This document shows positions 9,714 to 46,480 of a stretch of 64,000 nucleotides of DNA, piece after piece. The notes below the pieces were generated by a model. The model saw only the letters and a program-made list of their open reading frames with translations. It did not search any database and was not told the DNA's origin. The DNA lies in the NCBI GenBank assembly GCA_019321725.1, contig CM033122.1, positions 15,960,274-16,024,273 on the forward strand, in the 5' to 3' direction. A program made the position numbers and the translations under genes. Numbering within the stretch: the stretch's first letter is position 1; every line of letters starts with the position of its first letter. The stretch comes from Paulownia fortunei (taxonomy: Eukaryota; Streptophyta; Magnoliopsida; Lamiales; Paulowniaceae).

Positions 9714-10390
9714 GTTGTAAAATAATTTTTTTTTAAATTTTGTTGTATTATGAACTGTTTTAATAGCTTTTTTTTTTCACGCGGTTCATGGGTTTTCTTT
9801 TTCTTCTTCACTTATTCTTCTTCTACTCATTCTTAACTATTTATCTTCTCCCAACTTTCTTTCTTCATCTTCGTCTTCTTCTTATTTCAAACTTTTGTTT
9901 TTATTTTCTTTCTTCACCAACCAAGCATTCCAATAAGGCAGCGGCAATGACGATAGCAGTGATGCGGTGGCGATAACGGCGACGACGATCAAATTAAAAA
10001 GATAATTATTTTTATTTTATTATTATCATTTGTAAATTAGTTATTTAAGTATTAGTTTTTTTAAATTATATAATTGAGTATGCATTATATTTTGAAGTTA
10101 AGATGTTAGAAATTATTTTGTTGTTAATTTAAATTTTAGAGAGATAACAACAGTTTTTTTTGTTAATCCTTATTTTGTTTGATTTGATAATATGTTATAT
10201 TAACAATTTATTCATGTTGGGACTAATTAACACACTAATAACAATTAAAAATAATACTCTGTAGGTACATCAAAAAAATAAAATATACATCAAAAGCTTT
10301 TCTGTTAAAAAATATATATTAAAAATTTAATTTTATTATGAAATATAATATTTTAATTAATTATTAATAATTGTAGATAGTGAATAAAAT

Positions 10391-11514
10391 AAGAAATAGG
10401 GGTTTGAAAATTAATTAATAAATAAATAAATAAAATATATTATTATTTTAAAAATAGATAAATATAATATTTATTCACCAAAATATAGTTGATAAATATG
10501 TTGATAAATTAATTTAAGACAATAATTATTTAAAAATCACAATTACGAATTTAGGTTAGACATTAACGGTATGTAATAATGTTTCAAACCATCTTGATAA
10601 ATTTAAATGGTTTGCTCCCTTTTGAACTCTGGTTAGACTTCGCACAAGAATCAAGATTCAAGTAAGCACGGTAAAATGCAATATCGTTTAGAAACTTTGT
10701 GCATTTTTTCTGAAATTATCTTTTTAGTGGAGGTTGTTGCATTCGCAATTATTTTTCATAGGTTATAAAACTTTCAACTACTTCTATAATGGGAATTTTA
10801 CAAAATTAAATAATTGCATATTTTGCAACAAAAAATTAAGATTGTGCATATCGAAATCTTCTTTTTGACTAATTAAATATAAGATTAATATTTTAATTTG
10901 GTCTAGGGCACAAGAGAACTAAGTTAAAAAAAATTTAGTGATTAAAATAAGAAATGGGGTTTGAAAATTAATAAAAAATAAAATAAATAAATAATATATA
11001 TTAGTATTTTAAAAATAGATAAAATATAATAGTTATATACAATAATATAATTAATAAATATGTTTATTAAATTAATTTTAAAAAATAATTATTTAAAAAT
11101 CACCATTACAAATTTAATAATTATAGATAATGAATAAAATAAGAAATTGGGGTTTGAAAATTAATAAATAAATAAATAAATATAAATAAATAAAAAATAT
11201 ATTATTATTTTAAAAAAATAAATATAATATTTATATACAATAATATAGTTAATAAATATATTTATTAAGTTAATTTAAGAAAATAATATTTGAAAATCAC
11301 CATTACGAAATTAATAATTATATATAATGATTAAAATAAGAAATGGGGTTTGAAAATTAATAAAAAATTAAATAAATATAAATAAATAAATAAAATATAT
11401 TATTATTTTAAAAATAGATAAATATAATATTTATATACAATAATATAATTAATAAATATGTTTATTAAATTAATTTAAGAAAATAATTATTTAAAAATCA
11501 CCATTACGAATTTA
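10391..11514 (+). repeat. About 195-bp direct repeats upstream of the MULE transposase
   Basis: An AAGAAATGGGGTTTGAAAAT anchor occurs at 10391, 10948, 11141 and 11338. The last three are in tandem with a period of about 193-197 bp. Each unit runs through ATATTATTATTTTAAAAATA and AATAATATAATTAATAAATA to a TTAAAAATCACCATTACGAA end. The last unit finishes about 30 bp before the transposase ATG, so the array occupies the promoter. The first unit is separated by about 390 bp of non-repeat AT-rich DNA (10570-10930). Confidence 0.8.
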
Positions 11515-11546
11515 CTAATGAATAATTGCATTTAATTTTTGAAGAT

Positions 11547-25964: not shown

Positions 25965-27830
25965 TATCATGTGAGATCTCAAAAAGGGATTCTTTCAAGA
26001 AGAATCATTGGGGCAACGAGAGGAATAACAGAGAGCTTAAAAGTGGCACAAAAGGTGTATTCTGTTCCTTTGCATCTATGCAATAACGTTCTTTTCAGAA
26101 TCATCATCTTCTTTCTTAGCTTAGAGCATTAAAGTTGCATGGACGATGGTTTCCCAATATCCTAAATCATGCATGACTTAAGACCGGTGTCAAGCTATGG
26201 CCAAATGCTTTGACATCCTTTTAGTGCTTTCAACATTGTAATAGTAAGACTCCGGTGAATTATGGAATGGTGGGATGTGACAAAGATGCACGGCGCTGTT
26301 TCTCTTTTAGGCTGGCAATCATGTCTTGCTTTTCCTCTCTGTAATTTTTTTGTCTAGGGGATGAGTTATGAAAGCATTTGTTCAGTTTAGTCATTCCTTA
26401 TGTATTCTACTAGGAAAGGAACCTACATTATCTGCATGGACCCCATTGTTATTCTATGTTTCTGTACTTATTATTCGTTCATGGTATTGGGATCCTAGGA
26501 GTTCTTTATTCATCTATAATTTGGATGATAGTGTTCAATCATCTCATGTATTTGGAAAATTCTTACTGTTTTCATATTGAGGCCATATAATGTCCACAAC
26601 GTGGTCCACATTATACCAACATGACATGATACTTATAGTTTAATGTGGAACACTGTGTACACACAAATGTTGCAAGAGTCTGCTCTCATCACTTGAAGGC
26701 ATCTTTCTTGATTGGGGGGCAACCCAAGTGGTCTTAAAAAATGTTGCTTTCTAGAATTTGCACTGAAGGCATGATGAATTCAAGTGTGAGTGGCACCTAT
26801 TGAATTGGATTACTTATTCAATGAAAATGAACATTTCACCTTCAGGAACTCAACTGTAAACAGCTATGTTAAAAGTTAGTTACTTAGATGCAAATTAGAA
26901 CAAATCACTTGTCATTGTTCTTTTCTATTTTCGCTATAAACTGATCACTTTCGTACATGAAAGGAAGTGAGATATGATATGGTGTCTGTAAAATTATTTA
27001 CGATTTTTGCATCCAATATTTGTCAATGAAAATTGTGCAAAACATAGATATTACATAATTAGAGATGATATGTAATTTTATTAATCTTTTTCCCCATTTC
27101 AAATTCAATAACAAGAGAATATTTTATTATTTAATTGCATATATCTATCCTTTTGGTTCTGTTTTACATGATCATTTCACTTGTTTATTCTTCCAATATC
27201 ATCTATTGCACAAATTTTAATCTATTTTTTTTTCTTTATAAAACTCCACTAATTCTCTCTTTCGTCTTTTTTGATACCCCTCTGTGAATCCATTTTTTTC
27301 GCCTAATTACTCTTTCCATTGACATACAAAATGCGAAAAGATTATTCTCACCATTTCTTTACGTAGTAACACAAAGTATGTCATTTATTTAATGTTATTT
27401 CAATGTTTTTCGAGATAATAAGCAATTCATACATGAGAAATCTCATAAAATGCTGCTTATCAAATTAAATATACCTAGGTATCTAATTTTCACTACGTGT
27501 TTGTATTTTTTTTTTTTAAGAAAAAAGATATATTAGCATACTCTTTCATTATAGTTTGATCCATTCTAAATTTCTCAATGCAATTGATCTTCTATGCATA
27601 TATGATAATTCGTATTTGCAAGCCTATTTTACTTTCAGTTAAATTGTGAACTATGTACTGAAGTATATGTCCATGACTAAGAAACAAGGTTTATATAGGG
27701 TGAAATCTGCTTAGGTCAAAAAATTCATTCATCCATTATGTATTCTCTAAAAACTCACTCCAGTCAGCAGCAGGCCTCGTTGATTGGAGTGCAGCAACAT
27801 TACCCATTGCTGCTCTTGACCCATGCCTTT
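25965..27830. other. Glucanase 3' flank and AT-rich spacer
   Basis: The first few hundred bases (to about 26340) are probably the 3' untranslated region and flank; no single polyadenylation signal stands out. 26340-27830 is AT-rich with T runs and shows no supportable gene on either strand. Confidence 0.5.
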
Positions 27831-28058
27831 CATGACTAATTTAATACTTTATAATAAATTTAAAAATTAATTAATTTTATATTGCATAACGATAAAGTTG
27901 TAAAAATATACGTGAAAACGTATTTGAAGGTTGCGCTTTTGGTTCATGACTAATTTAATATTTTATAATAAATTTAAAAATTAATTAATTTTATATTGCA
28001 TGACGAGAAAGTTGTAAAAATATACGTGACAACGCATTTGAAGGTTGCACTTTCAACC
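27831..28058. repeat. 114-bp tandem duplication, MULE-like end region
   Basis: CATGACTAATTTAATA to TTGAAGGTTGC.CTTT occurs at 27831-27944 and again at 27945-28058, about 95 percent identical. It is followed at 28102-28124 by a hairpin (AAGCGCAACT, GAA, AGTTGTGCTT). The arrangement mirrors the right end of the MULE at 17150-17302, downstream of a PMD gene, and probably marks one end of a second element. Confidence 0.65.
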
Positions 28059-31640: not shown

Positions 31641-33553
31641 TTGCATTTAAATAGTCAAACAAATAATTGCATCCAGTAATGTTAAAATTTAAAGTAACAT
31701 ATTATAATTCGAATTAATCATAAACTTAGTCTTAATTAAGAAAAAGAAAACATAGAAAGTTACTTATAATCAAAATTAAGTTACTAGAAAGTTCTTTTTA
31801 GAAACACTGTCTATGCATAGGCATGGATTTTGGCATAGACCACAATCCATTTATTAATCACAAAAAAAATTACAAGTAGTTTTAATTACAAAAGTAAATC
31901 ATATAAAAAAAGGAGTATTACATAACATCAATATTGTTTTGGTTTGACATATCTTAAAACAATAATATTAATTATTCATTGCAACATAACGTATTTATTG
32001 CCATATTTATACTAACAACTTGTTGACAATAACAACAATATGCACGAATACAAGTAAAATACAATTAATAATAAAACATGCAAAAAATTAAACATTCAAA
32101 GATGTAGAAAGTAGTAATTCCAAAAACGTAATAGAACGAACTTTTATTATTGTTCTTTAATAAATTATTTTCAATCTTTATATAACGAATAATTCCCTTC
32201 ACTACTAGAATAAACTACAACAATAGTTATGTACGTATTTAAAAAAAATATTAGTTATGCTAATTGTCTTATGTTTACTTATATATAAGTATTAATACTA
32301 GAAATATTTTGTTACTAATATATATAAAAATATCATTGTCTTATTTATAGTGGGAGTAAAATGCTGACAAACTAAAAATTATTGTTAATGGAAATATAAC
32401 AAACATTTATTTTCTAAGCTGTAATTTTTGTTTTTTGTTATTTATAAATTTATTAATAAATTTATATTTTTTTTTTTGCAATATCATATTTATATACTAA
32501 TTCAGAAGAAATCAATTAATATGCAATATTTATTTATTTCTAAATAGATAATCTGGAACAGAAGTTCATATACTATTCATTTAATTTAAGCATACAGTTG
32601 GAGAAGCCCTAACATGAACTCAAAGTTAGGATTTCTCTTGTTCATATGGGGGATGTGTTAGGGTTCATTTTTTTTAGGCAGTGGCAAAATCATGTTGCTT
32701 AAGAATTAATATAATGTTTATTTTTTATTTTTTTTTGTCTATGAGTTGATTAATGTGAATTATGTAAGTAAATTGTGAGCAATGTAATGATTTGAGAGCA
32801 ATAGTTTTGATATTTTGAACAAATTTGATACAAAGCTTATGTAGCTTATGAAATTTGCTTCTTGTCACCGTTGCATCATATGTCCTTGTACTTTTTTATT
32901 TTTGTTTAATCAAGTGTTGTGATATATGAACTTTTATAAGATATTTTGCATTGTATTATACATAAATCAACCTTCTTAGATTGCATAAGCAAACCTAATT
33001 ACAACACACTTTAGCTTAAATGCCTAATTAAACTTTTTTGTATGTGCAAGCATCCACCCAATTGAAAGGTAAACTTTGAAAAGTCCATCAGTTGAAAAAT
33101 TGAAAACATCACGTTAAACCCCCCCCCCCCCCCCCCCCCCTGTTTGGTTTTCTTAAACCTTCACATGCAAGGCACATGCATGACAGTAACCCCAAAATAG
33201 ATGGTAATAAAATGCAAGTAAACAGTATCAATAAATAATAAAAAATAAGTAGAATATGATAGCTCTAAGGAGTGTATGTGTAAGTACCAAATATAGGTTA
33301 CCTATATTATATTTGATTACATAATTATAGTGGTGATTGAATTAAAATGCGACAACTACTAAATTTAACAAAAACATCTAAAATACAATGAGATTGACAG
33401 ATTGAATTCAATATTAAGGATAATCAAGGCATTGGTTAGTCATTTTATATTATTATGAATCTAACTTAATTGTGATTGAGAATGATGTGAGTTGTGTGAC
33501 GGTGGGTCATCCTAATGTAATTAGTAATTTTTTTTGAATCGGACCAAATCTAC
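31641..33553. other. AT-rich spacer with dispersed repeat copy, hairpin and C tract
   Basis: No gene seen. 32090-32530 matches the AT-rich repeat also found at about 47080-47530 and 53640-53960. A hairpin lies at 32599-32638 (GAGAAGCCCTAAC and GTTAGGATTTCTC, 11 of 13 paired). An uninterrupted run of 22 C occupies 33119-33140. Confidence 0.6.
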
Positions 33554-35165
33554 TGCTACAACTTTAAGGTTGCAAACCCAAGTGCAGGTTGTAGTAAGTA
33601 ATAAATTTCTCGTGAGTCCGAGGTCGATCCACAGGGAAGTTGTTTGAAAAATTCAAGTTTATATTTATAAAAAAATGGAGTTTATGTGAATCAAAAATAT
33701 ATAAACAATTAATGTATGATGTAGCTAAAGAAAAAACCTGAAGTAATAAAAGTACTGAGGATTAGGGATCCACTCTTGAGTTTTGGATAGATAAATGGTT
33801 ATTTATTCTTTTTACCTCTATTAATTGCCACAATTGGAATCCATACATAATGAAGGTTCCAATGGGAAGATATTATCAAGTAACTCATGCAATAAGGTAA
33901 TCATGATATTGTCTTACTATTGCAAATTATCTCTTAACGCCAACACTTATTTATGGGATCAAGCATTTATATACTCTTTCGTCAACAACAAATCAAGGTT
34001 TCACATTAGCAGTCGGTGGGGTAAAACCGTACAATAAGCTAAATGAAGCCAAGTATTGTTGTGCCATTGGAGATACATAAATCAAGAATCACCACAAAAA
34101 TAAGTAGGTTTAGATCAAAAATAATAATAATAATACAACATACTTAAACAATTTCTACCCTTATAACCATTTATCTTCCTCCATCAAGAGATTCACCCTT
34201 TTTCCTCAGCAAAATAAAATTTAGAAAGACATAATAAAAGTAACAAAGACTAAAAATATAAGAGAAACTAGAGAATGCATTTCTATTACTACTAGAAAAC
34301 TTACAATACTAGAAAACATACAAACTAGATAACTTAGCCTAAAGAAACCCTCTACCCCCCTCCTCTTACAAGCTGAATACATGGCCTATTTATAGTACTT
34401 GGAGTAAGCTAGAGGCCAAACAAATAATGGAGGAGTTAATCAAGTGGTATGCTAGTTGCCAAGAGTTGGTAAGTTGTTACACAAATTTCTCAACCACTGA
34501 ATTGAATTATATTTTTCGGTCAGATACAGCCAGAGTTTGAAGATACATAAAGAATAAAAATTGTAGATCTTTCAACGCTGATATATTTTCATATATCTTT
34601 TGTCAAATTTGGCGATCGGATGAAGGAGATATGGTCAAATTACCGAGTCATGTCCAAGAGCCGCCCTGTAACATCTGCAGCAACTTGCAGCCTATGGTTT
34701 TACCATTTCAACACATTTTCACACCATCTTGTCTTCAGCAAACTTGTTTATTTACCTCTTGGTATAACATATCCGAATTTTAGACCAAAATAAATTTGGG
34801 CTCAAGATATATAACCGAATTGGTAAAATAAGTCAATACTGGGCTGAACTTGATCTGAATTTTGGTGATCCATTTTGTGTAATTACTTGGATGAATTTTC
34901 TGCTATCATCAAGACTGAATTGGGCTGAGCCTCCAACATAAAAGTTGTACCTCTATCTCTTGGCTTTCAAATGAAACAAGCTTCAGGTCCATAGAGCTTT
35001 TGATCATGAAGTTATGCTCAAATTACAAAAACTGCACAAGTCTGAAAACATGCTTCCATTTATTCCCTAACACAAAATATTAATAAAACAAGAATATTAA
35101 CAAGAATAAAGCAAGAAAAGTATAAAGGATTTGATATAAAAATATGTCAAAATATGCACTTATCA
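33554..35165 (-). repeat. Athila 3' LTR
   Basis: 1,612 bp, the partner of 44042-45657. The length difference of four bases equals four single-base indels, all at or near short runs. Confidence 0.95.
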
Positions 35166-36932: not shown

Positions 36933-37584
36933 TCACAGACTGAGAGTCAAATTCAATTTGCGTTTTCGACCATTGTTCCTATTGGACCAATCCACATTAG
37001 CCAAGACTGGATCAGGTTTTGGCACATATGCTAGAAGTTGATCAATCAGCTGGTCAGGTGTTGGAGCAGAAATGATGATTCTTCTCGCAGAAGTTGAAAT
37101 AAACCCTTTTTTCGCAGCATGATCTACAAAAGATAGCAAACCATCATAAAAACCATTAACATTAAGAATACCTATAGGTTTTTGGTGAATGTTGAGTTGT
37201 GCCCAAGAGACAATTTGGAATAATTCTTCCAGTGTACCAAAACCGCCAGGTAGAATGATGAATGCATCCGCATTGTTTACCATATTAGGCATTCTGTCCT
37301 GAATATGTGACACTTTCAGCTCATCTCCAATGGTCATACCTGTGATATTCTGTACTGTTAAACATTTTGGATAACTCCCAAACTTTGACACCTCCTACAT
37401 AAGCAGAAATGGCAACACTCCCCATTAACCCCAAACTGCCTCCCCCATACACTAAATGAATTTTTCTTTCTGCTAAAGTTCTACCAAGATTATTGGCTGC
37501 CCCTATAAACTCACCATTTTTTCCTAGATTGGATCCACAAAAAACACAAATGGAATTAAATTTGCGAGTTGAAGAAACTTCCAT
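36933..37584 (-). pseudogene. LOG-like cytokinin riboside 5'-monophosphate phosphoribohydrolase, intronless, one frameshift
   Basis: LOG enzymes release active cytokinin from its nucleotide. Start ATG 37584 (MEVSSTRKF). Family motifs in order: ICVFCGSNLGKN (residues 12-23), HLVYGGGSLGLMG (43-55), a TIGDELKV segment, an Arg in the substrate-binding helix, ADAFIILPGGFGTLEEL (PGG at about residue 112, codons 37242-37250), SWAQLNIHQKPIGILNVNGF and SARRIIISAPTPDQLIDQLL. The length of about 215 codons matches the family. A frameshift at about 37385 splits it; all signature residues remain. Plant LOG genes normally have several introns and this copy has none, which suggests capture through RNA. It lies in the element's sense orientation, before the 3' LTR. 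An A-rich run precedes the ATG. Confidence 0.88.
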
Positions 37585-37736
37585 TTTCTTTTCTTTTTTT
37601 TTTTTTTTTTTTGAAAATAAGTTGTGCAAAAATAGAGTGAGTACGGTGATATTTATTGAGGTGTGAACAGGGAATACATTTATTGCATGTCTTTTTCTTT
37701 TGTCAAAAAGGTTGAAAATAAGGACACATACGAAAT

Positions 37737-37991
37737 TTAAAAATTACCTACTACCACGTGTATGTACATGTAGTTGTGATTGTGGCTCACATCTTCCTCT
37801 GGTTTTACGTCCAGTAACGGCTTAAACGCCCTCTGTGGGTCGAGGATATGCTTCCCATCCAGTTTTCTTATAAACTGGCAAACAGGGTCTTTTAATGTCA
37901 GATTCCCAAGACTAAAACTCATATTCATTTCGAAAACGATCCCATAAATCAAGAATTGCACGTTGTACCAATCCACATGAATGCATCTCAA
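37737..37991 (-). other. Unidentified open segment between the two cargo genes
   Basis: About 84 codons are open, overlapping the end of the cysteine-rich ORF in another frame. The part after the overlap (LTLKDPVCQFIRKLDGKHIL, then FKPLLDVKPEEDVSH) looks like protein, but I cannot assign it. It could be a frameshifted continuation of the upstream ORF or a separate relic. Confidence 0.3.
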
Positions 37992-38388
37992 GAGTCAATA
38001 TAATGTGATCTAAAGACTCCTTACTCAGTCCATCCATAATGAATTTAAGTTTATCTTCTCGATTTTTAGAGACCATTCCTAAAGAACGACACTTTGTGTT
38101 GCAAGTCCATCTAGCACAAATATGACAAACTTTCATTTTTTTCGCCCTTCATTTTTTTGAATATGTGCTTTTACCAAAACCAGACATGTATCTAGTAAGC
38201 AAATCTGGAAACTCATGTGAAAACTCACCTGCCCTTACCTTTGCTTCAATTAACCATCGTATGTCCTCCGGAATGCCCTTGTGCATAAGCATCCTCAATC
38301 TTTCAATCCTGATTTTATAAATTTTCAAAATTGCATTTTTAGGAAGAAAAGGAAATCGCTTCTTGAGAGTTAGAAATATGTCATCCAT
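37912..38388 (-). pseudogene. Cysteine-rich basic ORF resembling betaflexivirus nucleic-acid-binding protein
   Basis: A 158-residue frame starts at ATG 38388 (MDDIFLTLKK) and is interrupted once, by TGA at 38149-38151 (about residue 80). The upstream part is helical and basic. Around the stop lies a Gly-x-Ser-Thr-Tyr plus Lys/Arg cluster, then a C-x2-C-x4-C-x3-C knuckle (CHICARWTCNTKC, about 38127-38089), then a charged helical tail. A Gly/Ser/aromatic plus basic run directly before a Cys cluster is the layout of the small nucleic-acid-binding proteins (silencing suppressors) of carla- and vitiviruses. I infer such an origin from this pattern only; a zinc-knuckle gene of other origin is possible. 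It sits directly after integrase, on the element's strand, in the env-like position. Confidence 0.5.
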
Positions 38389-38589
38389 TTTGAAAATAAT
38401 AAGAAAAGAGAATGAGAAAAACAAAGAAAATTTGTACAAAGATTTCAGTTGTTTGGGAAACTGACAAGTCCGACTTTTATAGCCACGGAGTACCGTTATC
38501 CGCCATTTAACCGAGAAAAGAAAAAATAAAAAATAAAAGAAGAAGAAGAGAAGAAAAAAATAATGTCAGATAAAAAAATATATACAACA

Positions 38590-39770
38590 CTAATCATAAC
38601 AAGGGTTAGAAAGAAAAAGAATTTCCTCTTGTGAAAATTGATTTTCTAGAAATGGTTTAACTCTTTGTCCATTTACTTTGAATATGTTACCATTTCTAGG
38701 ATTCTCAATGTCAATCGCCCCATAAGGATATACTTTTTTTACAACAAAAGGACCACTCCACCTTGATCTCAATTTTCCAGGAAACAAATGCAATCGAGAA
38801 TTATAAAGCAAAACCTTTTGACCAACCTCAAATATTTTTCTTGAAATTTTATTATCATGAAAATCTTTGATTCTTGCTTTATAAATTTTAGAATTCTCAT
38901 ATGCATCATTTCTCAGTTCTTCAAGTTCATTGATTTGCAATTTGCGCAATTTTGAAACTTCATCAAGGTTGAAGTTAAACATTTTGATTGCCCAATAAGC
39001 TTTATGTTCAAGTTCAACAGGTAAATGACAAGGTTTTCCATAAACTATCCTATAAGGAGACATGCCTAATGATGTTTTGAAAGCAGTTCTATATGCCCAA
39101 AGTGTATCGGTAAGTCTAAGAGACCAATCTTTACGGTTTGGGTTAACTGTTTTCTCCAAAATTTGTTTTATCTCCCTATTTGCAAGTTCAACTTGTCCAT
39201 TTGTCTGAGGATGATAAGGGGTTGCAACTTTATGTATGATTCCATATTTCTTCATTAAAGTTTCGAAAACTTTATTACAAAAATATTTTCCCCCATCACT
39301 GATAATAGATCTAGGAATTCCAAATCGACTTAAAATATTTTCTTTCAAAAATTTTATCACTATTTTGTGATCATTGTTTTGACAAGGAATTGCCTCGATC
39401 CATTTTGAAACATAATCTATGGCAACCAATATGTAAAGAAAACCAAATGATAATGGAAATGGCCCCATAAAATCAATACCCCAACAGTCAAAGATTTCAA
39501 TCACTAGGATAGGGTGTAGGGGCATCATATTTCTCTTTGAAAGGGACCCTAACTTTTGACAATTTTCACAACTTTTGCAGAAAGTGAAGTATCTTTGAAA
39601 AGAGTTGGCCAATAAAATCCACATTGCAAGATTTTTGCAGTAGTTTTCTTTACAGAAAAATGACCACCACATGCTTCTGAATGACAAAATTTGACAATAT
39701 TACCTATCTCATTGTCAGGCACACATCTTGAAAGATTTGATGCGGACAATATTTGAATAGGTATGGATCA
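38590..39770 (-). pseudogene. Athila integrase
   Basis: An HHCC zinc-binding part ([14 protein letters not shown], then [11 protein letters not shown]) is split by a frameshift near 39590. The catalytic core is complete: Asp in [12 protein letters not shown], Asp in [11 protein letters not shown], Glu in [19 protein letters not shown]. The C-terminal part has [40 protein letters not shown] and [20 protein letters not shown], which place it in Athila/Calypso. It ends at 38590, about 150 bp before the next frame. Confidence 0.9.
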
Positions 39771-39795: not shown

Positions 39796-40645
39796 TCAAA
39801 AATTCTTTTTATCTTGAGAGTTCCAATGTGATGGCATCTTTCCTATTACAAGAAAATTAACAATGTCAGCAAACCAAGGTAAAATAGAAACGTTAAATAA
39901 TTGTTCATCAGGGAAAGTGTCATTAATAGGTGTGGTTTGAAATGAGTCATCACAAACAAGTCTCGACAAATGATCAGCCACTACATTCTCTACCCCTTTT
40001 TATCTCGAATAGTAACATTAAATTCCTGAGTAAGAGAATCCACCTAATCAGTCTTGGTTTAGCATCTTTTTTTGACAAAAGATATTTCAAAGCTGCATGA
40101 TCACTGAAAACAACAATTGGTGAGCCAACAAGATAAGATCGAAATTTATCTAATGCAAAAACTACAGCAAGTAATTCTTTTTCAGTTGTTGTATAATTCA
40201 ATTGAGCACCATTTAAAGTTTTACTTGCATAGTAAATAACATATAGTTTTTTATCTTTTCTTTGTCCCAAGACAGCTCCAACAGCATAATCACTAGCATC
40301 ACACATTATTTCAAAAGGTAAAGTCCAATCTGGAGGCTGGATGATTGGAGCAGACGTAAGCATGCTTTTAAGCTTAACAAAAGCATTTTCACAGTTTTCA
40401 TTCCATTCAAAAATAGTGTCTTTTGTTAGAAGATTACACAAAGGTTTAGATATTAAACTAAAATCTTTGATAAATCTTCTATAAAAACCAGCATGTCCTA
40501 AAAATGATCTAATCTCCTTCACAGTCTTTAGTGTTGGCAAATTGACAATTAACTCAATTTTAGATTTATCAACCTCAATACTTCTGATGATATAATGTGT
40601 CCAAGAACAATACCAGTTGTTACCATGAAGTGACATTTCTCCCAA
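39796..40645 (-). pseudogene. Athila RNase H domain
   Basis: It reads EIRSFLGHAGFYRRFIKDFS, then the RNase H core CDASDYAVGAVLGQR (first Asp), TTTEKELLAVVFALDKF (Glu), VVFSDHAALKYLL (second Asp) and ADHLSRL (last Asp). A frameshift near 40000 splits the last motif from the rest. It continues in another frame to about 39796. It degrades RNA in the RNA-DNA hybrid. Confidence 0.85.
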
Positions 40646-42471
40646 TTGAGCACAAGATTCTTTTCTTCACACCTGATCAAAACCTTTTCTAAATTAGATA
40701 AGCAATCATCAAATGAATTACCAAAAACAGAAAAATCATCCATGAAGACTTTAAGAAAACATTCAACCATGTCACTAAAAATACTAAGCATGCATCGTTG
40801 GAATGTAGCTGGTGCATTACATAATCCAAAAGGCATCCTTCGATATGCAAAAGTACCAAAAGGACACGTAAAAGTTGTTTTCTCTTGATCTTCAAGTGCA
40901 ATTGCAATTTGGTTATATTCAGAATATCCATCTAAAAAGCAATAAAATTCGTGTCCTGCAACTCTTTCTAAAATTTGATCCATGAAAGGTAATGGAAAAT
41001 GATCTTTTCTAGTGACTGAGTTGAGTTTTCTATAGTCAATGCACATTCGCCAACCAGTAACAGTCCTAGTTGGAATTAATTCATCATTCTCATTCTTGAC
41101 TACAGTAACTCCAGATTTCTTAGGTACAACTTGAGTCGGACTTACCCATTTGCTATCAGAAATAGAATAAATGATTCCATTATCTAAGAGTTTCATGACT
41201 TCATTTCTTACTACTTCTTTCATATTAGGATTTAGCTTTCGTTGCATTTCTCTAGATGGTTTAGCATTTTCCTCTAGATAGATGTTATGTGTGTAAATGA
41301 AATGATTAATACCTTTAATATCAGCAATGGTCCATCCTAAAGCATTCTTATGCATTTTCAGAGTTTCGATCAACTTACCTTCTTGATATGCATCGAGTTT
41401 GGAAGAAATTATTACTGGAAAAGTTTCATTCTCACCCAAGAAAGAGTATTTCAAATTAACTGGCAAAGGTTTCAATTCAACCACGGGAGCTTTAATACTT
41501 GATGGAATAGATTTTACTGTTGATGATGAAAGTTCTTCGAACCTTGGCTTCCAAAAATATTTTTCTTGTACCTGCAAAAATTCAGAGATAGTATTAGTGT
41601 GTTCCTTTTTATAAATACTTTCACTTTTAAAACAAGTCTCCAAAGAATCTGAAGAGTTAGTAGTAGTAAAGTATTCATGAACAAGTTCTTCAATTGAATC
41701 CACTTCATGTACTTCGACATCTTCTGCAGGTTGCATACAAACATTAAACACATTTAGTTCCAAAGTCATATTTCCAAATGATAACTTCAAAATACCATTT
41801 CTACAATTGATCAAAGCATTTGAAGTTGCAAGAAAAGGACGACCCAAAATGATAGGAATTTGTGTATGTGTTTGTGCAACAGGCTCTGTGTCCAAAACAA
41901 TGAAATCAACTAGAAAGTAAAACTTATCAATTTGTACCAACACATCTTCTACTATTCCCTTTGGAACTTTAATCGAACGGTCAGCTAATTGGAGTACAAC
42001 AGAAGTTGTTTTAAGTTCTCCCAAACCTAACTGTTCATAAACTGAGAAAGGTAGAAGATTTACACTAGCACCAAGATCAAGCAAAGCACGCTCTATTCTA
42101 GTGTTTCCTATGATACATGAAATAGTTGGACAACCTGGATCTTTGTACTTGGGTGGAGTGAATTGTTGAATGATTGAACTAACACTTTCAGTTAAAAATG
42201 CCTTCTTTTGTACATGATGTTTTCTTTTGATTGTACACAAATCTTTTAAAAATTTGGCATAAGGTGGAACTTGCTTGATTGCATCCAATAATGGAATATT
42301 AATCTTGACTTGTTTAAAAATTTCAAAAATTTCAGCATTTGAGTTCAATTTCTGAGTTGCTTGCAATCTTTGAGGAAAGGGTGCTGGAGGTAAATATTTT
42401 TCTTTTTCTTCATTTTCACGCTTACCTTCTTCAAACTTACCTTTATCGTCAAGACTATTTCCATTTTTCAT
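40549..42471 (-). pseudogene. Athila protease and reverse transcriptase
   Basis: This is the longest open pol segment (640 codons). Protease: ALLDLGASVNLLPFSVYEQL near residues 130-150, the D-L-G active site usual in Athila, with an IPIILGRPFL end near 207. RT: SKWVSPTQVVPKKSG, WRMCIDYRKLNSVTRKDHFP, FCFLDGYSEYNQI-type motif A, MPFGLCNAPATFQRCM, catalytic VFMDDFSVFG, NWEKCHFMV. All RT catalytic Asp residues are present. A frameshift between about 40560 and 40640 separates it from RNase H; otherwise it looks intact. Confidence 0.9.
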
Positions 42472-43841
42472 TTCTGGAGGTGGATTAGAAACTTTCTCCT
42501 TGGGATGAATAGTCTTGTCAACAACTTTTCCATTCCGAAGAGTTGTAACTGAATTAGCCTCCTTGACTGCATTTTCACCTGAAGAAGAAACATGACACTA
42601 AGTAGAAGGATTAGGTTGAGGTTGAGCAGGAAATTACCTTTTTCATGAGTACGCAAAGAAGTTGTCAGTGTTGAAAGTGTGCTTCTGATCTCATTGATAG
42701 CTTGTGAAGTCTGATTATTGATGTTTGTTTGTTCATGCATAAATGCTTGCAAAGTCTCCTCAATGGATTTTGTATGTGGAGGTGAATAAGAATGAAAGTT
42801 TTGTGGTTTTTGTGAATGCGGTGGTTGGGCACGGTTATCATCTCGCCAACTGAAATTGGGATGATTTCTCCATTGTGGATTGTAAGTTTCAGAATATGAA
42901 GAATGGAAAGGCTTTTTGAATGTGTTCATAAAATTTGCTTGTACTGGAAGGTTTGGACATTCATTGGTGGAGTGCCCCAAAAGTTCACAATTTCTACAAA
43001 CTTCTTCCTCTTGCACAGATTTGATTTTCTTTACTTTCTTAAGTTCCATGGCTTCAACTTTTCTTGTTAAACTAGCAAGTCTAGCATTTAGATCATCTTC
43101 TTGACTAAGGTAATATTTTCCTTTATTACTATTAGCAAGATTAGATCTAATAGAACCTTCGGAAGAATTAACACTATGCCATGATTGAGAGTTTTCTGCC
43201 AAATGATCTAGGTATTCTAGGGCTTCATCAGGTTCCTTATCAAGAAACTCACCATTACACATTGTTTCAACAAATTATTTTGTTTTAGGAGTTAAACCTT
43301 CATAAAAGAAACTAATTAAGCGCCATTTTTCAAAACCATGATGTGGGCATGAATTCAACAAATCTTTAAATCTTTCCCAACATTGAAAGAAAACTTCATT
43401 CGAATTTTGAGAAAAATTTTGAATTTGTCTTTTCAAAGCATTAGTTTTATGAGTTGGAAAGAATTTTTTCAAGAATTCAGCTTGCATTTCTTGCCAAGTA
43501 CCAATTGACCTAGGTTTTAAAGAATTAAGCCAATTTTTTGCTTTATCTTTTAAAGAAAAAGGAAATAATTTGAGCTTAACAATCTCATTTGTGCAAGTTC
43601 GATCATCAAAAGTGGCACATAATTCATCAAATTCTTTTAAATGCAAGTAAGGACTTTCAGAGTCTAAACCATGGAAATTAGGAAGTAAATGGATCATACC
43701 TGACTTGAATCGAAAATTATTTGCATTTAGAGGAAAAATGAAACAAGAAGGAGAAGAATTTCGAGGAGGTTGCAAGTAATAACGCATGGTACGCACCTGT
43801 TGATTCTTATTTTCATCCTGGACACTTTCATTTTCAGCCAT
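42468..43841 (-). pseudogene. Athila gag, interrupted
   Basis: Start ATG 43841 (MAENESVQDENKN). A Retrotrans_gag capsid domain spans about residues 60-185 (FHGLDSESPYLHLKEFDELC, KDKAKNWLNSL, WQEMQAEFLKKFFP). A TAA at 43275-43277 in an otherwise continuous frame replaces a Gln-compatible codon. The frame then continues (MCNGEFLDKEPDEALEYLDH) through a Lys-rich coiled segment and a zinc knuckle, CRNCELLGHSTNECPN (CX2CX4HX4C intact, about 43005-42955). A frameshift near 42640 and a stop near 42600 separate it from pol. It is broken but recently so. Confidence 0.85.
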
Positions 43842-44018
43842 GGTGGAAGTGTGTGGAGATGATTCAAACAAATTTCCAAACAAAGTTTCGGAATTATTTC
43901 TTACTAAACGTCGAGAATTATGACTACGATACCATATAACCATATATCCATAAAGAAAATAAACAAACTATATTTACAAAGGAAAAATATTAACAAACCT
44001 GAATACTTACCTTGCCTT

Positions 44019-44035
44019 CCCCGGCAACGGCGCCA
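44019..44035 (-). promoter_or_regulatory. Primer binding site (tRNA-Asp)
   Basis: On the element strand TGGCGCCGTTGCCGGGG lies 6 nt inside the 5' LTR. It is the standard tRNA-Asp-complementary site of plant Athila/Tat elements and primes minus-strand synthesis. Confidence 0.9.
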
Positions 44036-44041
44036 AAAACT

Positions 44042-45657
44042 TGCTACAACTTTAAGGTTGCAAACCCAAGTGCAGGTTGTAGTAAGTAATAAATTTCTCG
44101 TGAGTCCGAGGTCGATCCACAGGGAAGTTGTTTGAAGAATTCAAGTTTATATTTATAAAAAGATGGAGTTTATGTGAATCAAAAATATATAAACAATTAA
44201 TGTATGATGTAGCTAAAGAAAAAACCTGAAGTAATAAAAGTACTGAGGATTAGGGATCCACTCTTGAGTTTTGGATAGATAAATGGTTATTTATTCTTTT
44301 TACCTCTATTAATTGCCACAATTGGAATCCATACATAATGAAGGTTTCAATGGGAAGATATTATCAAGTAACTCATGCAATAAGGTAATCATGATATTGT
44401 CTTACTATTGCAAATTATCTCTTAACGCCAACACTTATTTATGGGATTAAGCATTTATATACTCTTTCGTCAACAACAAATCAAGGTTTCACATTAGCAG
44501 TCGGTGGGGTAAAACCGTACAATAAGCTAAATGAAGCCAAGTATTTGTTGTGCCATTGGAGATACATAAATCAAGAATCACCACAAAAATAAGTAGGGTT
44601 TAGATCAAAAATAATAATAATAATACAACATACTTAAACAATTTCTACCCTTATAACCATTTATCTTCCTCCATCAAGAGATTCACCCTTTTTCCTCAGC
44701 AAAATAAAATTTAGAAAGACATAATAAAAGTAACAAAGACTAAAAATATAAGAGAAACTAGAGAATGCATTTCTATTACTACTAGAAAACTTACAATACT
44801 AGAAAACATACAAACTAGATAACTTAGCCTAAAGAAACCCTCTACCCCCCTCCTCTTACAAGCTGAATACATGGCCTATTTATAGTACTTGGAGTAAGCT
44901 AGAGGCCAAACAAATAATGGAGGGGTTAATCAAGTGGTATGCTAGTTGCCAAGAGTTGGTAAGTTGTTACACAAATTTCTCAACCACTGAATTGAATTAT
45001 ATTTTTCGGTTAGATACAGCCAGAGTTTGAAGATACGTAAAGAATAAAAATTGTAGATCTTTCAACGCTGATATATTTTCATATATCTTTTGTCAAATTT
45101 GGCGATCGGATGAAGGAGATATGGTCAAATTACCGAGTCATGTCCAAGAGCCGCCCTGTAACATCAGCAGCAACTTGCAGCCTATGGTTTTACCATTTCA
45201 ACACATTTTCACACCATCTTGTCTTCAGCAAACTTGTTTATTTACCTCTTGGGTATAACATATCCGAATTTCAGACCAAAATAAATTTGGGCTCAAGATA
45301 TATAACCGAATTGGTAAAATAAGTCAATACTGGGCTGAACTTTGATCTGAATTTTGGTGATCCATTTTGTGTAATTACTTGGATGAATTTTCTGCTATCA
45401 TCAAGACTGAATTGGGCTGAGCCTCCAACATAAAAGTTGTACCTCTATCTCTTGGCTTTCAAATGAAACAAGCTTCAGGTCCATAGAGCTTTTGATCATG
45501 AAGTTATGCTCAAATTACAAAAACTGCACAAGTTTGAAAACATGCTTCTATTTATTCCCTAACACAAAATATTAATAAAACAAGAATATTAACAAGAATA
45601 AAGCAAGAAAAGTATAAAGGATTTGATATAAAAATATGTCAAAATATGCACTTATCA
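44042..45657 (-). repeat. Athila 5' LTR
   Basis: 1,616 bp. On the element strand it begins TGATAAGTGCATATTTTGAC and ends GGTTGTAGCA (plus strand TGCTACAACC-like start at 44042). It is 99.3 percent identical to 33554-35165. As 5' LTR it carries the promoter. The terminal TG..CA is intact. Confidence 0.95.
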
Positions 45658-46480
45658 TCTACCCCTAGTAGACCATCTCTAGCTCTGGGTCATCCTACTA
45701 AGAGTGCCTTGAACTTTGTGAATTTTACTAGTTTTTTATTTTCACACTTAAGACTACTGCATGTTGCTATACCTATATCTCTATAGGGGTCGATTTGTGG
45801 TATACACTACCCGATCTATTATTACAACCATACCTCTCGGTCTTAATTGTTACAATTAAAATCAACTTGAAATTTGTCAAGTCAAGAAGCATTAAAAACA
45901 AAGCATATGCTCATCACAATCAAAATTACACTCCAATCACAATATAAACATCAACTCATAACTCAATAAAAATGATTTTCCAAGCCTTGACAATAGTGAT
46001 TTAGTTAATATTGAAATTAAGCAAGCACCAAGTATTTTTCAACATCATGATTCTTATAAATTTCTCAAACTAAACAAAATGAAAAAAGAAATTAAAGTAG
46101 AAAATTATAATATTAAGTGATTCTTCACTTCTCTTTCAAAATCTTCAATGCCCAATGAAGTTCCTCCTCTTCTTGTCTTCAAATCCCAAGCTCCTTGGTA
46201 ATGATTGTATATGTTTTTGGTGTAATGTGTGAAAAAATGTAAAAAAACGTGTGTTTTAGGTGAACAAGAAATGTGTGTGAGAATTTAGGTATAAAGTATC
46301 AGAGGTGTGAATTATGTGATGAAAAGTGTGATGTGAATTATGTATATAATGTATACAAGCATATCAAATGGATGGTGATGTATGTAGTATTTAAAAGGTG
46401 AAAAACAAGAAATATGTCAACATGAGTCTTTTTTCGGCACTTGTCATCATAATCCAAGTGGAGAATATTTTTATGTTATA
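45658..46480. other. Spacer, possibly old LTR DNA
   Basis: No gene. It begins with the Athila target duplication TCTAC. The segment with CTATAGGGGTCGATTTGTGG (about 45782) has the look of an old LTR, but no partner is found in the window. Confidence 0.35.

What the first reader, a model, noticed from the sequence alone, without database searches (positions are those of the whole stretch)
37912..38388. Virus-like cysteine-rich (silencing-suppressor type) gene carried by an Athila retrotransposon
Directly after integrase, on the element's strand, lies a small frame combining a Gly-Ser-Thr-Tyr/basic run with a C-x2-C-x4-C-x3-C knuckle and a charged tail, broken by one TGA at 38149-38151. That layout is known from the nucleic-acid-binding proteins of carla- and vitiviruses (Betaflexiviridae), several of which suppress RNA silencing. 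If homologous, a retrotransposon has taken a plant RNA virus gene whose product would counter the host pathway that silences transposons. I see the motif layout; homology and function are inferred.
Basis: partly seen in the sequence, partly recalled or inferred. Interest (0 to 1): 0.92.

Follow-up and report, generated by a model that had tools for sequence, protein, structure and literature searches.

The report
Virus-type RNA-binding gene in plant retrotransposon
A plant jumping gene of the Athila type carries, just after its integrase, a broken copy of a small zinc-finger gene whose intact relatives in other plant genomes match the nucleic-acid-binding proteins of filamentous plant RNA viruses, some of which block RNA silencing.

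Summary
The two open pieces at 37912-38388 (minus), searched apart, belong to a conserved ~182-aa protein family labelled from nine eudicot species (best E 1.4e-37 and 1.4e-27). The window pieces alone match no Pfam family; of 84 near-intact relatives, 77 match Viral_NABP and 74 Carla_C4 at E<=0.01, reversed/shuffled controls 0 of 7. The gene belongs to the retrotransposon: one independent plant contig (L001) has integrase, a 204-nt gap and an intact 182-aa copy in the same order, 76% identical over 2454 columns. Finger spacing differs from a carlavirus, so it is a divergent branch. Capture from a betaflexivirus-like virus is the likeliest origin; the reverse is not excluded. Silencing suppression is untested. 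The element also carries a broken, captured LONELY GUY gene. The own-genome search did not complete, so copy number is unknown.

The parts
44042..45657 (-). 5' LTR
   Evidence: 99.07% identical to 33554-35165 over 1616 columns, 11 mismatches, 4 gap openings
33554..35165 (-). 3' LTR
33549..33553 (.). target-site duplication TCTAC, 3' side of the element
   Evidence: flanks printed
45658..45662 (.). target-site duplication TCTAC, 5' side of the element
   Evidence: flanks printed
44018..44035 (-). primer binding site, TGGCGCCGTTGCCGGGGA; resembles the complement of a tRNA-Asp 3' end (recalled)
   Evidence: print
43275..43967 (-). gag frame
   Evidence: PF03732 Retrotrans_gag E 6.1e-26
40549..42597 (-). 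protease/reverse transcriptase frame
   Evidence: PF00078 E 1e-27, PF13650 E 4.3e-5
39974..40666 (-). RNase H frame
   Evidence: PF17917 E 1.4e-36
38590..39699 (-). integrase frame
   Evidence: PF00665 rve E 1.2e-16
38484..38504 (-). 21-nt block in the spacer between integrase and the NABP-like gene, identical in L001
38152..38388 (-). NABP-like gene, N-terminal open piece (79 codons, ends in the Gly-Ser-Thr-Tyr/basic run)
38149..38151 (-). in-frame TGA that breaks the gene
37912..38148 (-). NABP-like gene, basic + C-x2-C-x4-C-x3-C + tail piece (78 codons)
37836..37916 (-). conserved C-terminus of the NABP-like gene, in another frame
37767..37832 (-). highly conserved block after the position of the stop codon of L001's copy
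   Evidence: 93.9% identical to L001 2348-2413
37321..37590 (-). LONELY GUY-like gene, N-terminal piece
   Evidence: TIGR00730 E 2.1e-15, 56.9 bits, below its cutoff of 96.35 as a fragment
36933..37394 (-). LONELY GUY-like gene, C-terminal piece in another frame
   Evidence: PF03641 E 4.5e-34; PDB relative At2g37210 E 1.5e-39

Best explanation
The feature is a decayed copy of a 3' accessory gene of an Athila-like Ty3/gypsy retrotransposon lineage. Shown: in its intact form the gene encodes a ~182-aa basic protein with a G-x-G-K/R-S...KKRRAK basic run, a compact four-cysteine cluster and a strongly conserved C-terminus; copies are recorded from nine labelled eudicot species and many unlabelled contigs; intact relatives match the profiles of nucleic-acid-binding proteins of filamentous plant RNA viruses; it sits behind integrase in two independent elements. 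Inferred: an ancestor of this lineage gained the gene once, long ago, most likely by copying a betaflexivirus-like RNA into the element, and kept it under purifying selection. Inferred mechanism, most likely: the protein binds nucleic acid through the basic run and cysteine cluster and helps the element past host RNA silencing or transcriptional control, as several viral relatives do; an RNA-chaperone, export or packaging role is about as likely. The window copy is dead, so any benefit would come from intact copies elsewhere.
For: Family: pieces searched apart find 38 proteins (41 candidates) and 32 proteins (32 candidates) at E<=10; a profile of 14 relatives finds 927 at E<=10 among 4081 candidates, of which the best 120 are listed, all E<=3.1e-80. 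Organism labels, present on 10 of the listed proteins: Paulownia, Striga, Parasponia, Hibiscus, Populus (two species), Xanthoceras, Acer, Rhamnella, and one Clostridioides difficile entry on a 293-base contig that I take for contamination. Profile homology: of 10 relatives scanned, 7 pass Pfam's cutoff for Viral_NABP and 9 for Carla_C4; of 84 rows (L001 plus 83 of the 180 proteins seen, chosen as the best-scoring near-full-length ones), 77 and 74 match at E<=0.01; L001's copy has 34.2 bits against the Viral_NABP cutoff of 23; reversed/shuffled controls match neither family, 0 of 7. Fold search with a weak model: 14 of the first 16 BFVD rows are named proteins of filamentous plant viruses (virus types recalled), 13 of them called nucleic-acid/RNA-binding or silencing suppressor, the other two rows unnamed; the PDB gave 0 rows at E<=10. 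Carriage: L001 is collinear with the window through integrase, spacer and gene. Selection, window versus L001: dN/dS 0.08 (piece 1, dS saturated), 0.41 (piece 2), 0.18 (C-terminus), 0.11 for the integrase stretch. Function of viral relatives: the potato virus H protein suppressed local silencing and PVM's is cited as a suppressor (PMC3689765, passages); the grapevine virus A protein is cited as a suppressor (PMC4472227, passages).
Against: The window pieces alone hit no Pfam family, even at E 10, the break falling inside the motif. Finger spacing differs from the carlavirus spacing read (0 of 84 fit it). L001's copy is just under the Carla_C4 cutoff (19.8 against 20.9). Four of the seven control sequences hit other Pfam families below cutoff, best E 0.0036, so E<=0.01 alone is a lenient bar. 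No viral sequence was aligned or put in a tree; the best BFVD match has E 0.069 and none reaches 0.001, TM-scores of the viral rows are at most 0.31, and the model is poor (pLDDT 66, pTM 0.31). Only one other element was seen with its context. The related CVB p12 was unable to suppress locally induced silencing (PMC3689765 passage). dN/dS came from one pair with one broken member. Silencing suppression was not tested.
Confidence: 0.62

Rival explanations
1. Direction reversed: the gene arose in plant Ty3/gypsy elements (or in a plant gene that they took) and betaflexiviruses gained their nucleic-acid-binding protein from plants or their retrotransposons.
For: The plant family is large and uniform (60-79% identity to L001's copy in 82 of the 83 other rows chosen, one 100%; the rows were chosen among the best hits) and labelled from rosids and asterids (groups recalled), so it is old; the named viral rows of the fold search are only 15-27% identical. 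The gene is patchy in Betaflexiviridae: present in carla- and vitiviruses and some trichoviruses (PMC4472227 passage).
Confidence: 0.22
2. An endogenous viral fragment or host gene that merely happens to lie in this element, with no role for the element.
For: The window copy is broken twice; the element also carries a broken LOG gene, showing that other sequence does get trapped here.
Against: Same gene at nearly the same spacing (201 and 204 nt after integrase) in an independent element with an intact frame; a large conserved family.
Confidence: 0.06
3. The product is a retrotransposon RNA chaperone, export or packaging factor without anti-silencing activity.
For: A basic run next to a small cysteine cluster is what a nucleocapsid-like helper needs (inference); a strongly conserved C-terminus lies outside the Viral_NABP match (residues 36-123 of 182 in L001), so an element-specific job is plausible.
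Against: The element's gag region already has a weak CCHC-like stretch (E 0.16, below cutoff); no direct test.
Confidence: 0.35
4. A gag knuckle, env-like ORF or ordinary host zinc-finger gene misread as viral.
For: Short cysteine clusters are common.
Against: Viral_NABP and Carla_C4 match 77 and 74 of 84 relatives; the only other families at E<=0.01 matched 1 of 84 each; no PDB relative by sequence at E<=1 or by fold at E<=10.
Confidence: 0.03

Closest known systems
Viral_NABP (PF05515) and Carla_C4 (PF01623): nucleic-acid-binding / cysteine-rich proteins of carlaviruses, vitiviruses and relatives
   Same: Basic run followed directly by a four-cysteine cluster; profile scores above the curated cutoffs in 7 and 9 of 10 relatives scanned
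   Different: About 182 aa; finger spacing C-x2-C-x4-C-x3-C in 72 of 84 against C-X2-C-X9-C-X4-C in potato virus H (PMC3689765 passage); extra conserved C-terminus; encoded by an LTR retrotransposon
AlkB-type RNA demethylase in Phalaenopsis Ty3/gypsy elements (PMC9289625: abstract, outline and section 12 read)
   Same: A plant Ty3/gypsy lineage that fixed an RNA-directed accessory domain, proposed to bear on host control
   Different: An enzyme, related by that paper to plant demethylases and found in two orchids only. A viral NABP domain is not among those named in section 12, and 'nucleic acid binding', 'NABP' and 'carla' gave 0 hits in its main text; its supplement was not seen
RNA-virus SF1 helicase domains in insect retrotransposons (PMC6338049, parts 1-2 of 4 read)
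   Same: A plus-strand RNA virus domain taken by retrotransposons, with weak silencing suppression reported
   Different: Insects; a helicase in LINEs or fused to LTR-element proteins; here a separate small gene in a plant LTR element
Extra 3' ORFs of Athila elements, including LOG/YgdH-like ones (PMC9289625 section 12, which cites Steinbauerova et al. 2011; that paper could not be opened)
   Same: Position after pol, sense strand; the window element carries a LOG-like gene too
   Different: No viral-NABP-like extra ORF appears in what I read
Additional ORFs of active sunflower elements, one set proposed to modulate RNA silencing (PMC11728184, abstract and passages)
   Same: Accessory retrotransposon proteins suspected of acting on silencing
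   Different: Tekay 5' ORF likened to DRBM proteins by structure; its Athila ORFs matched Transposase_32 or nothing, not a viral NABP

Membership tests
Viral_NABP / Carla_C4 (betaflexivirus nucleic-acid-binding protein) | Profile score above the curated cutoff | tested here: met
   For relatives: 7 of 10 (PF05515) and 9 of 10 (PF01623); L001's copy 34.2 against 23 for PF05515 but 19.8 against 20.9 for PF01623. Not met by the window's two open pieces.
Viral_NABP / Carla_C4 | Basic motif next to the cysteine cluster | tested here: met
   Alignment A1; a strict pattern for the basic run fits 56 of 84
Carlavirus CRP in the narrow sense | Finger spacing C-x2-C-x9-C-x4-C (as read for potato virus H) | tested here: not met
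   0 of 84; 72 of 84 have C-x2-C-x4-C-x3-C
Carlavirus CRP in the narrow sense | Encoded in the 3' part of a plus-strand RNA virus genome | tested here: not met
   Encoded in an LTR element, after integrase
Viral suppressor of RNA silencing | Suppresses silencing in a reporter assay | not testable with these tools
   Needs a bench test
Athila lineage (Ty3/gypsy) | RT-RH-IN order with IN last and a long 3' region with an extra ORF (criterion partly recalled) | tested here: met
Athila lineage (Ty3/gypsy) | tRNA-Asp-type primer binding site (recalled) | tested here: inconclusive
   TGGCGCCGTTGCCGGGGA after the 5' LTR; the tRNA match is recalled, not computed
Athila lineage (Ty3/gypsy) | Position in a reverse-transcriptase tree; ATHILA ORF-1 domain (PF03078, found in 16% of Athila elements per PMC6317226 passage) | tested here: inconclusive
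No PF03078 match in the 10 window frames or the 4, which its rarity makes uninformative
LONELY GUY (cytokinin riboside 5'-monophosphate phosphoribohydrolase) | Lysine_decarbox / TIGR00730 profile | tested here: met
   C-terminal piece PF03641 117.9 bits (cutoff 27) and TIGR00730 104.8 (cutoff 96.35); the stricter bacterial equivalog NF058542 is not met (67.5 against 300). The gene is broken by a frame change

The most novel reading that the evidence does not exclude
A whole branch of plant Athila retrotransposons, spread over rosids and asterids, has carried for a very long time a functional nucleic-acid-binding gene shared with betaflexiviruses, and uses it to counter the RNA silencing that controls transposons; the same arms-race tool passed between an RNA virus and a retroelement, in one direction or the other.
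Probability: 0.35. Interest if true: 0.93.

Novelty: new variant of a known kind. Interest (0 to 1): 0.78.

Why it matters
Plant retrotransposons are held down mainly by small-RNA silencing and DNA methylation. Anti-silencing genes are known in VANDAL DNA transposons (cited in PMC11728184, passage) but hardly, to my knowledge, in plant LTR elements. A conserved viral-type nucleic-acid-binding gene in a retrotransposon lineage makes that idea directly testable, gives the origin of the betaflexivirus silencing suppressor a concrete place to look, and offers a possible function for one set of the 3' extra ORFs of Athila elements.

Tried and rejected
Gag knuckle, env-like ORF and host zinc-finger readings were tested by Pfam and rejected. 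A conserved RNA structure around the gene was tried: four folds (two regions, two elements) are not clearly better than shuffles (z -1.40, -1.24, -0.15, 0.56), and Rfam gave nothing on L001 (the window was not scanned). IMG/VR was scanned five times, for the protein family (two patterns sets), for L001's integrase and for two DNA blocks: no relative. PDB by sequence (E<=1) and by fold (E<=10): none. A pattern of mine for the C-terminus was mis-written (0 of 84) and is not used. In one search the first ~25 codons of the integrase comparison are out of register because the window's pol changes frame there, so the integrase dN/dS is rough. NCBIfam gave nothing for L001's copy. Literature for novelty: some searches answered; in their listings, and in the abstracts or passages that I opened of six retrotransposon papers (PMC9289625, PMC6338049, PMC7264820, PMC11728184, PMC6317226, PMC11963269), I saw no viral NABP-like gene in a plant retrotransposon. 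Preprints and most subscription papers are not held, and no supplement was seen.

Full report
What was claimed.

The sequence. One search confirms the frame and the TGA at 38149-38151. The surrounding element is clear: LTRs at 33554-35165 and 44042-45657, 99.07% identical, a 5-bp duplication TCTAC on both sides, gag, protease/RT, RNase H and integrase on the minus strand. The pol frames are displaced several times, so the copy is defective although its LTRs are nearly identical. The NABP-like gene is longer than reported: full-length homologues continue with SLGNLTxKDPVCQFIRKLDGKxIxDP or close to it, which in the window lies in another frame at 37836-37916. The gene is therefore broken twice. 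Intact copies exist in relatives.

Homologues. I searched the two open pieces apart. The N-terminal piece finds 38 proteins at E<=10 among 41 candidates; the best is 97% identical over 89% of the piece (Paulownia fortunei, partial, E 1.4e-37), then a 70% identical 182-aa protein at E 3.4e-26. The cysteine piece finds 32 of 32 candidates, best E 1.4e-27. A profile of 14 relatives finds 927 proteins at E<=10 among 4081 candidates; only the best 120 are listed, all E<=3.1e-80. Ten listed proteins carry an organism label: nine eudicots (Paulownia, Striga, Parasponia, Hibiscus, Populus x canadensis, Populus alba, Xanthoceras, Acer, Rhamnella) and one Clostridioides difficile entry on a 293-base contig, probably plant contamination. 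The others are unlabelled. The Paulownia hit suggests, but does not prove, that the window is from Paulownia or a near relative. A protein tree of 87 rows (midpoint root) pairs Acer with Xanthoceras, both Sapindaceae (recalled), as vertical descent would; since most rows have no name I do not lean on it.

Relation to viruses. The window pieces alone match no Pfam family, even at E 10. Relatives do: of 10 scanned, 7 pass Pfam's cutoff for Viral_NABP and 9 for Carla_C4. I then took L001's copy and 83 of the 180 proteins seen, choosing the best-scoring near-full-length ones and leaving out fragments and lower ranks; of these 84, 77 and 74 match at E<=0.01, while four other families match one member each. 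Reversed and shuffled controls match neither family, 0 of 7, though four of them hit other families below cutoff, best E 0.0036, so the matches above the curated cutoffs (E to 1.1e-8) carry the weight. The match covers residues 36-123 in L001's copy, so it includes part of the N-terminal half as well as the basic run and cysteines. An AlphaFold2 model is weak (pLDDT 66, pTM 0.31). Its Foldseek search of viral models has no match at E<=0.001 (best 0.069), yet 14 of the first 16 of 29 rows are named proteins of filamentous plant viruses, 13 of them called NABP, NBP, RNA-binding or silencing suppressor, at 15-27% identity; the other two of the 16 are unnamed. The same model finds nothing in the PDB at E<=10. 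I read this as support for relationship, not as proof of a shared fold.

Differences. The four cysteines are spaced C-x2-C-x4-C-x3-C in 72 of 84 members, and the longer viral spacing fits none; potato virus H has C-X2-C-X9-C-X4-C (PMC3689765, passages seen). The C-terminus is strongly conserved (many of its positions are nearly invariant in 84 rows) and lies outside the Viral_NABP match. I therefore call it a divergent branch related to the viral NABPs and not a carlavirus protein.

Part of the element. A scan of genome contigs gave one locus, L001, a 3330-base contig filed in a bacterial MAG that by its content is plant retrotransposon DNA. It carries an integrase frame at 104-1594 (PF00665 and PF17921) whose start aligns with the end of the window's RNase H frame, and after 204 bases an intact 182-aa copy at 1799-2344. 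It is collinear with the window over 2454 columns at 76% identity. The corresponding gap in the window is 201 bases. So the gene has the same place after integrase in two independent elements. That is the strongest evidence that it belongs to the retrotransposon; more contexts are needed, and the own-genome search did not complete (17 tries).

Selection. Between L001 and the window, by a simple counting method and with the pieces apart, dN/dS is 0.08 for the N-terminal piece (dS saturated), 0.41 for the cysteine piece, 0.18 for the C-terminus and about 0.11 for the integrase stretch. All are below 1, but this is one pair with one broken member. Protein-level conservation of the 84 chosen members (mean column identity 57%) agrees, with the reservation that they were chosen among the best hits.

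How it probably works. For viral relatives: the potato virus H protein suppresses local silencing, while chrysanthemum virus B p12 did not suppress locally induced silencing and is described as acting as a plant transcription factor that causes hyperplasia (PMC3689765 passages); the grapevine virus A protein is cited as a suppressor (PMC4472227 passages). From that I infer nucleic-acid binding by the basic run and cysteines (likely), then help against silencing or transcriptional control (about one in three), or RNA chaperoning, export or packaging (about one in three). I have no functional test.

Origin. Because the family is uniform in plants and only distantly similar to viral proteins, this does not look like a recent endogenous viral fragment. 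One ancient transfer fits best. Virus to retrotransposon is favoured by precedents (viral helicases in insect retrotransposons, PMC6338049; and, for gain of an RNA-directed domain as such, an AlkB demethylase in orchid Ty3/gypsy elements, PMC9289625). The reverse cannot be excluded.

The LOG gene. Between the NABP-like gene and the 3' LTR lies a LONELY GUY-like gene in two frames without an evident intron (PF03641 117.9 bits; TIGR00730; PDB relative At2g37210 1.5e-39). LOG-type (YgdH) domains in Citrus and Populus LTR elements are already published (PMC9289625 section 12). The 983 bases of L001 after its gene show no translated match to it.

Novelty. In the searches that answered I saw no report of this gene in a plant retrotransposon; databases do label some copies 'Viral nucleic acid binding' or 'Carlavirus putative nucleic acid binding protein'. 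Preprints and most subscription papers are outside what I could search. Retrotransposon capture of accessory and even viral genes is known, so I rate this a new variant of a known kind.

Noticed in passing
window 36933-37590 (-): LONELY GUY-like gene without an evident intron, broken by a frame change, carried between the NABP-like gene and the 3' LTR; LOG-type domains in such elements are published for Citrus and Populus (PMC9289625).
   Followed up: partly
window 37767-37916 (-); L001 2261-2413: The best-conserved DNA of the 2.4-kb comparison is the end of the NABP-like gene and 66 bases past L001's stop (92-94% against 75% for the integrase frame); unexplained, no clear RNA fold, no Rfam match in L001.
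   Followed up: partly
window 38484-38504 (-); L001 about 1679-1699: A 21-nt block identical in both elements, 95-99 nt before the start of the NABP-like gene, in a spacer otherwise 55-57% identical; could be a splice, promoter or translation signal.
   Followed up: partly
L001 1-3330 (DAIEQH010000041.1): Plant retrotransposon DNA filed in a Candidatus Nomurabacteria MAG: contamination of a public bacterial genome.
   Followed up: no
window 10363-11519 and 27829-28053: Direct repeats, copies 86-95% identical and close together.
   Followed up: no
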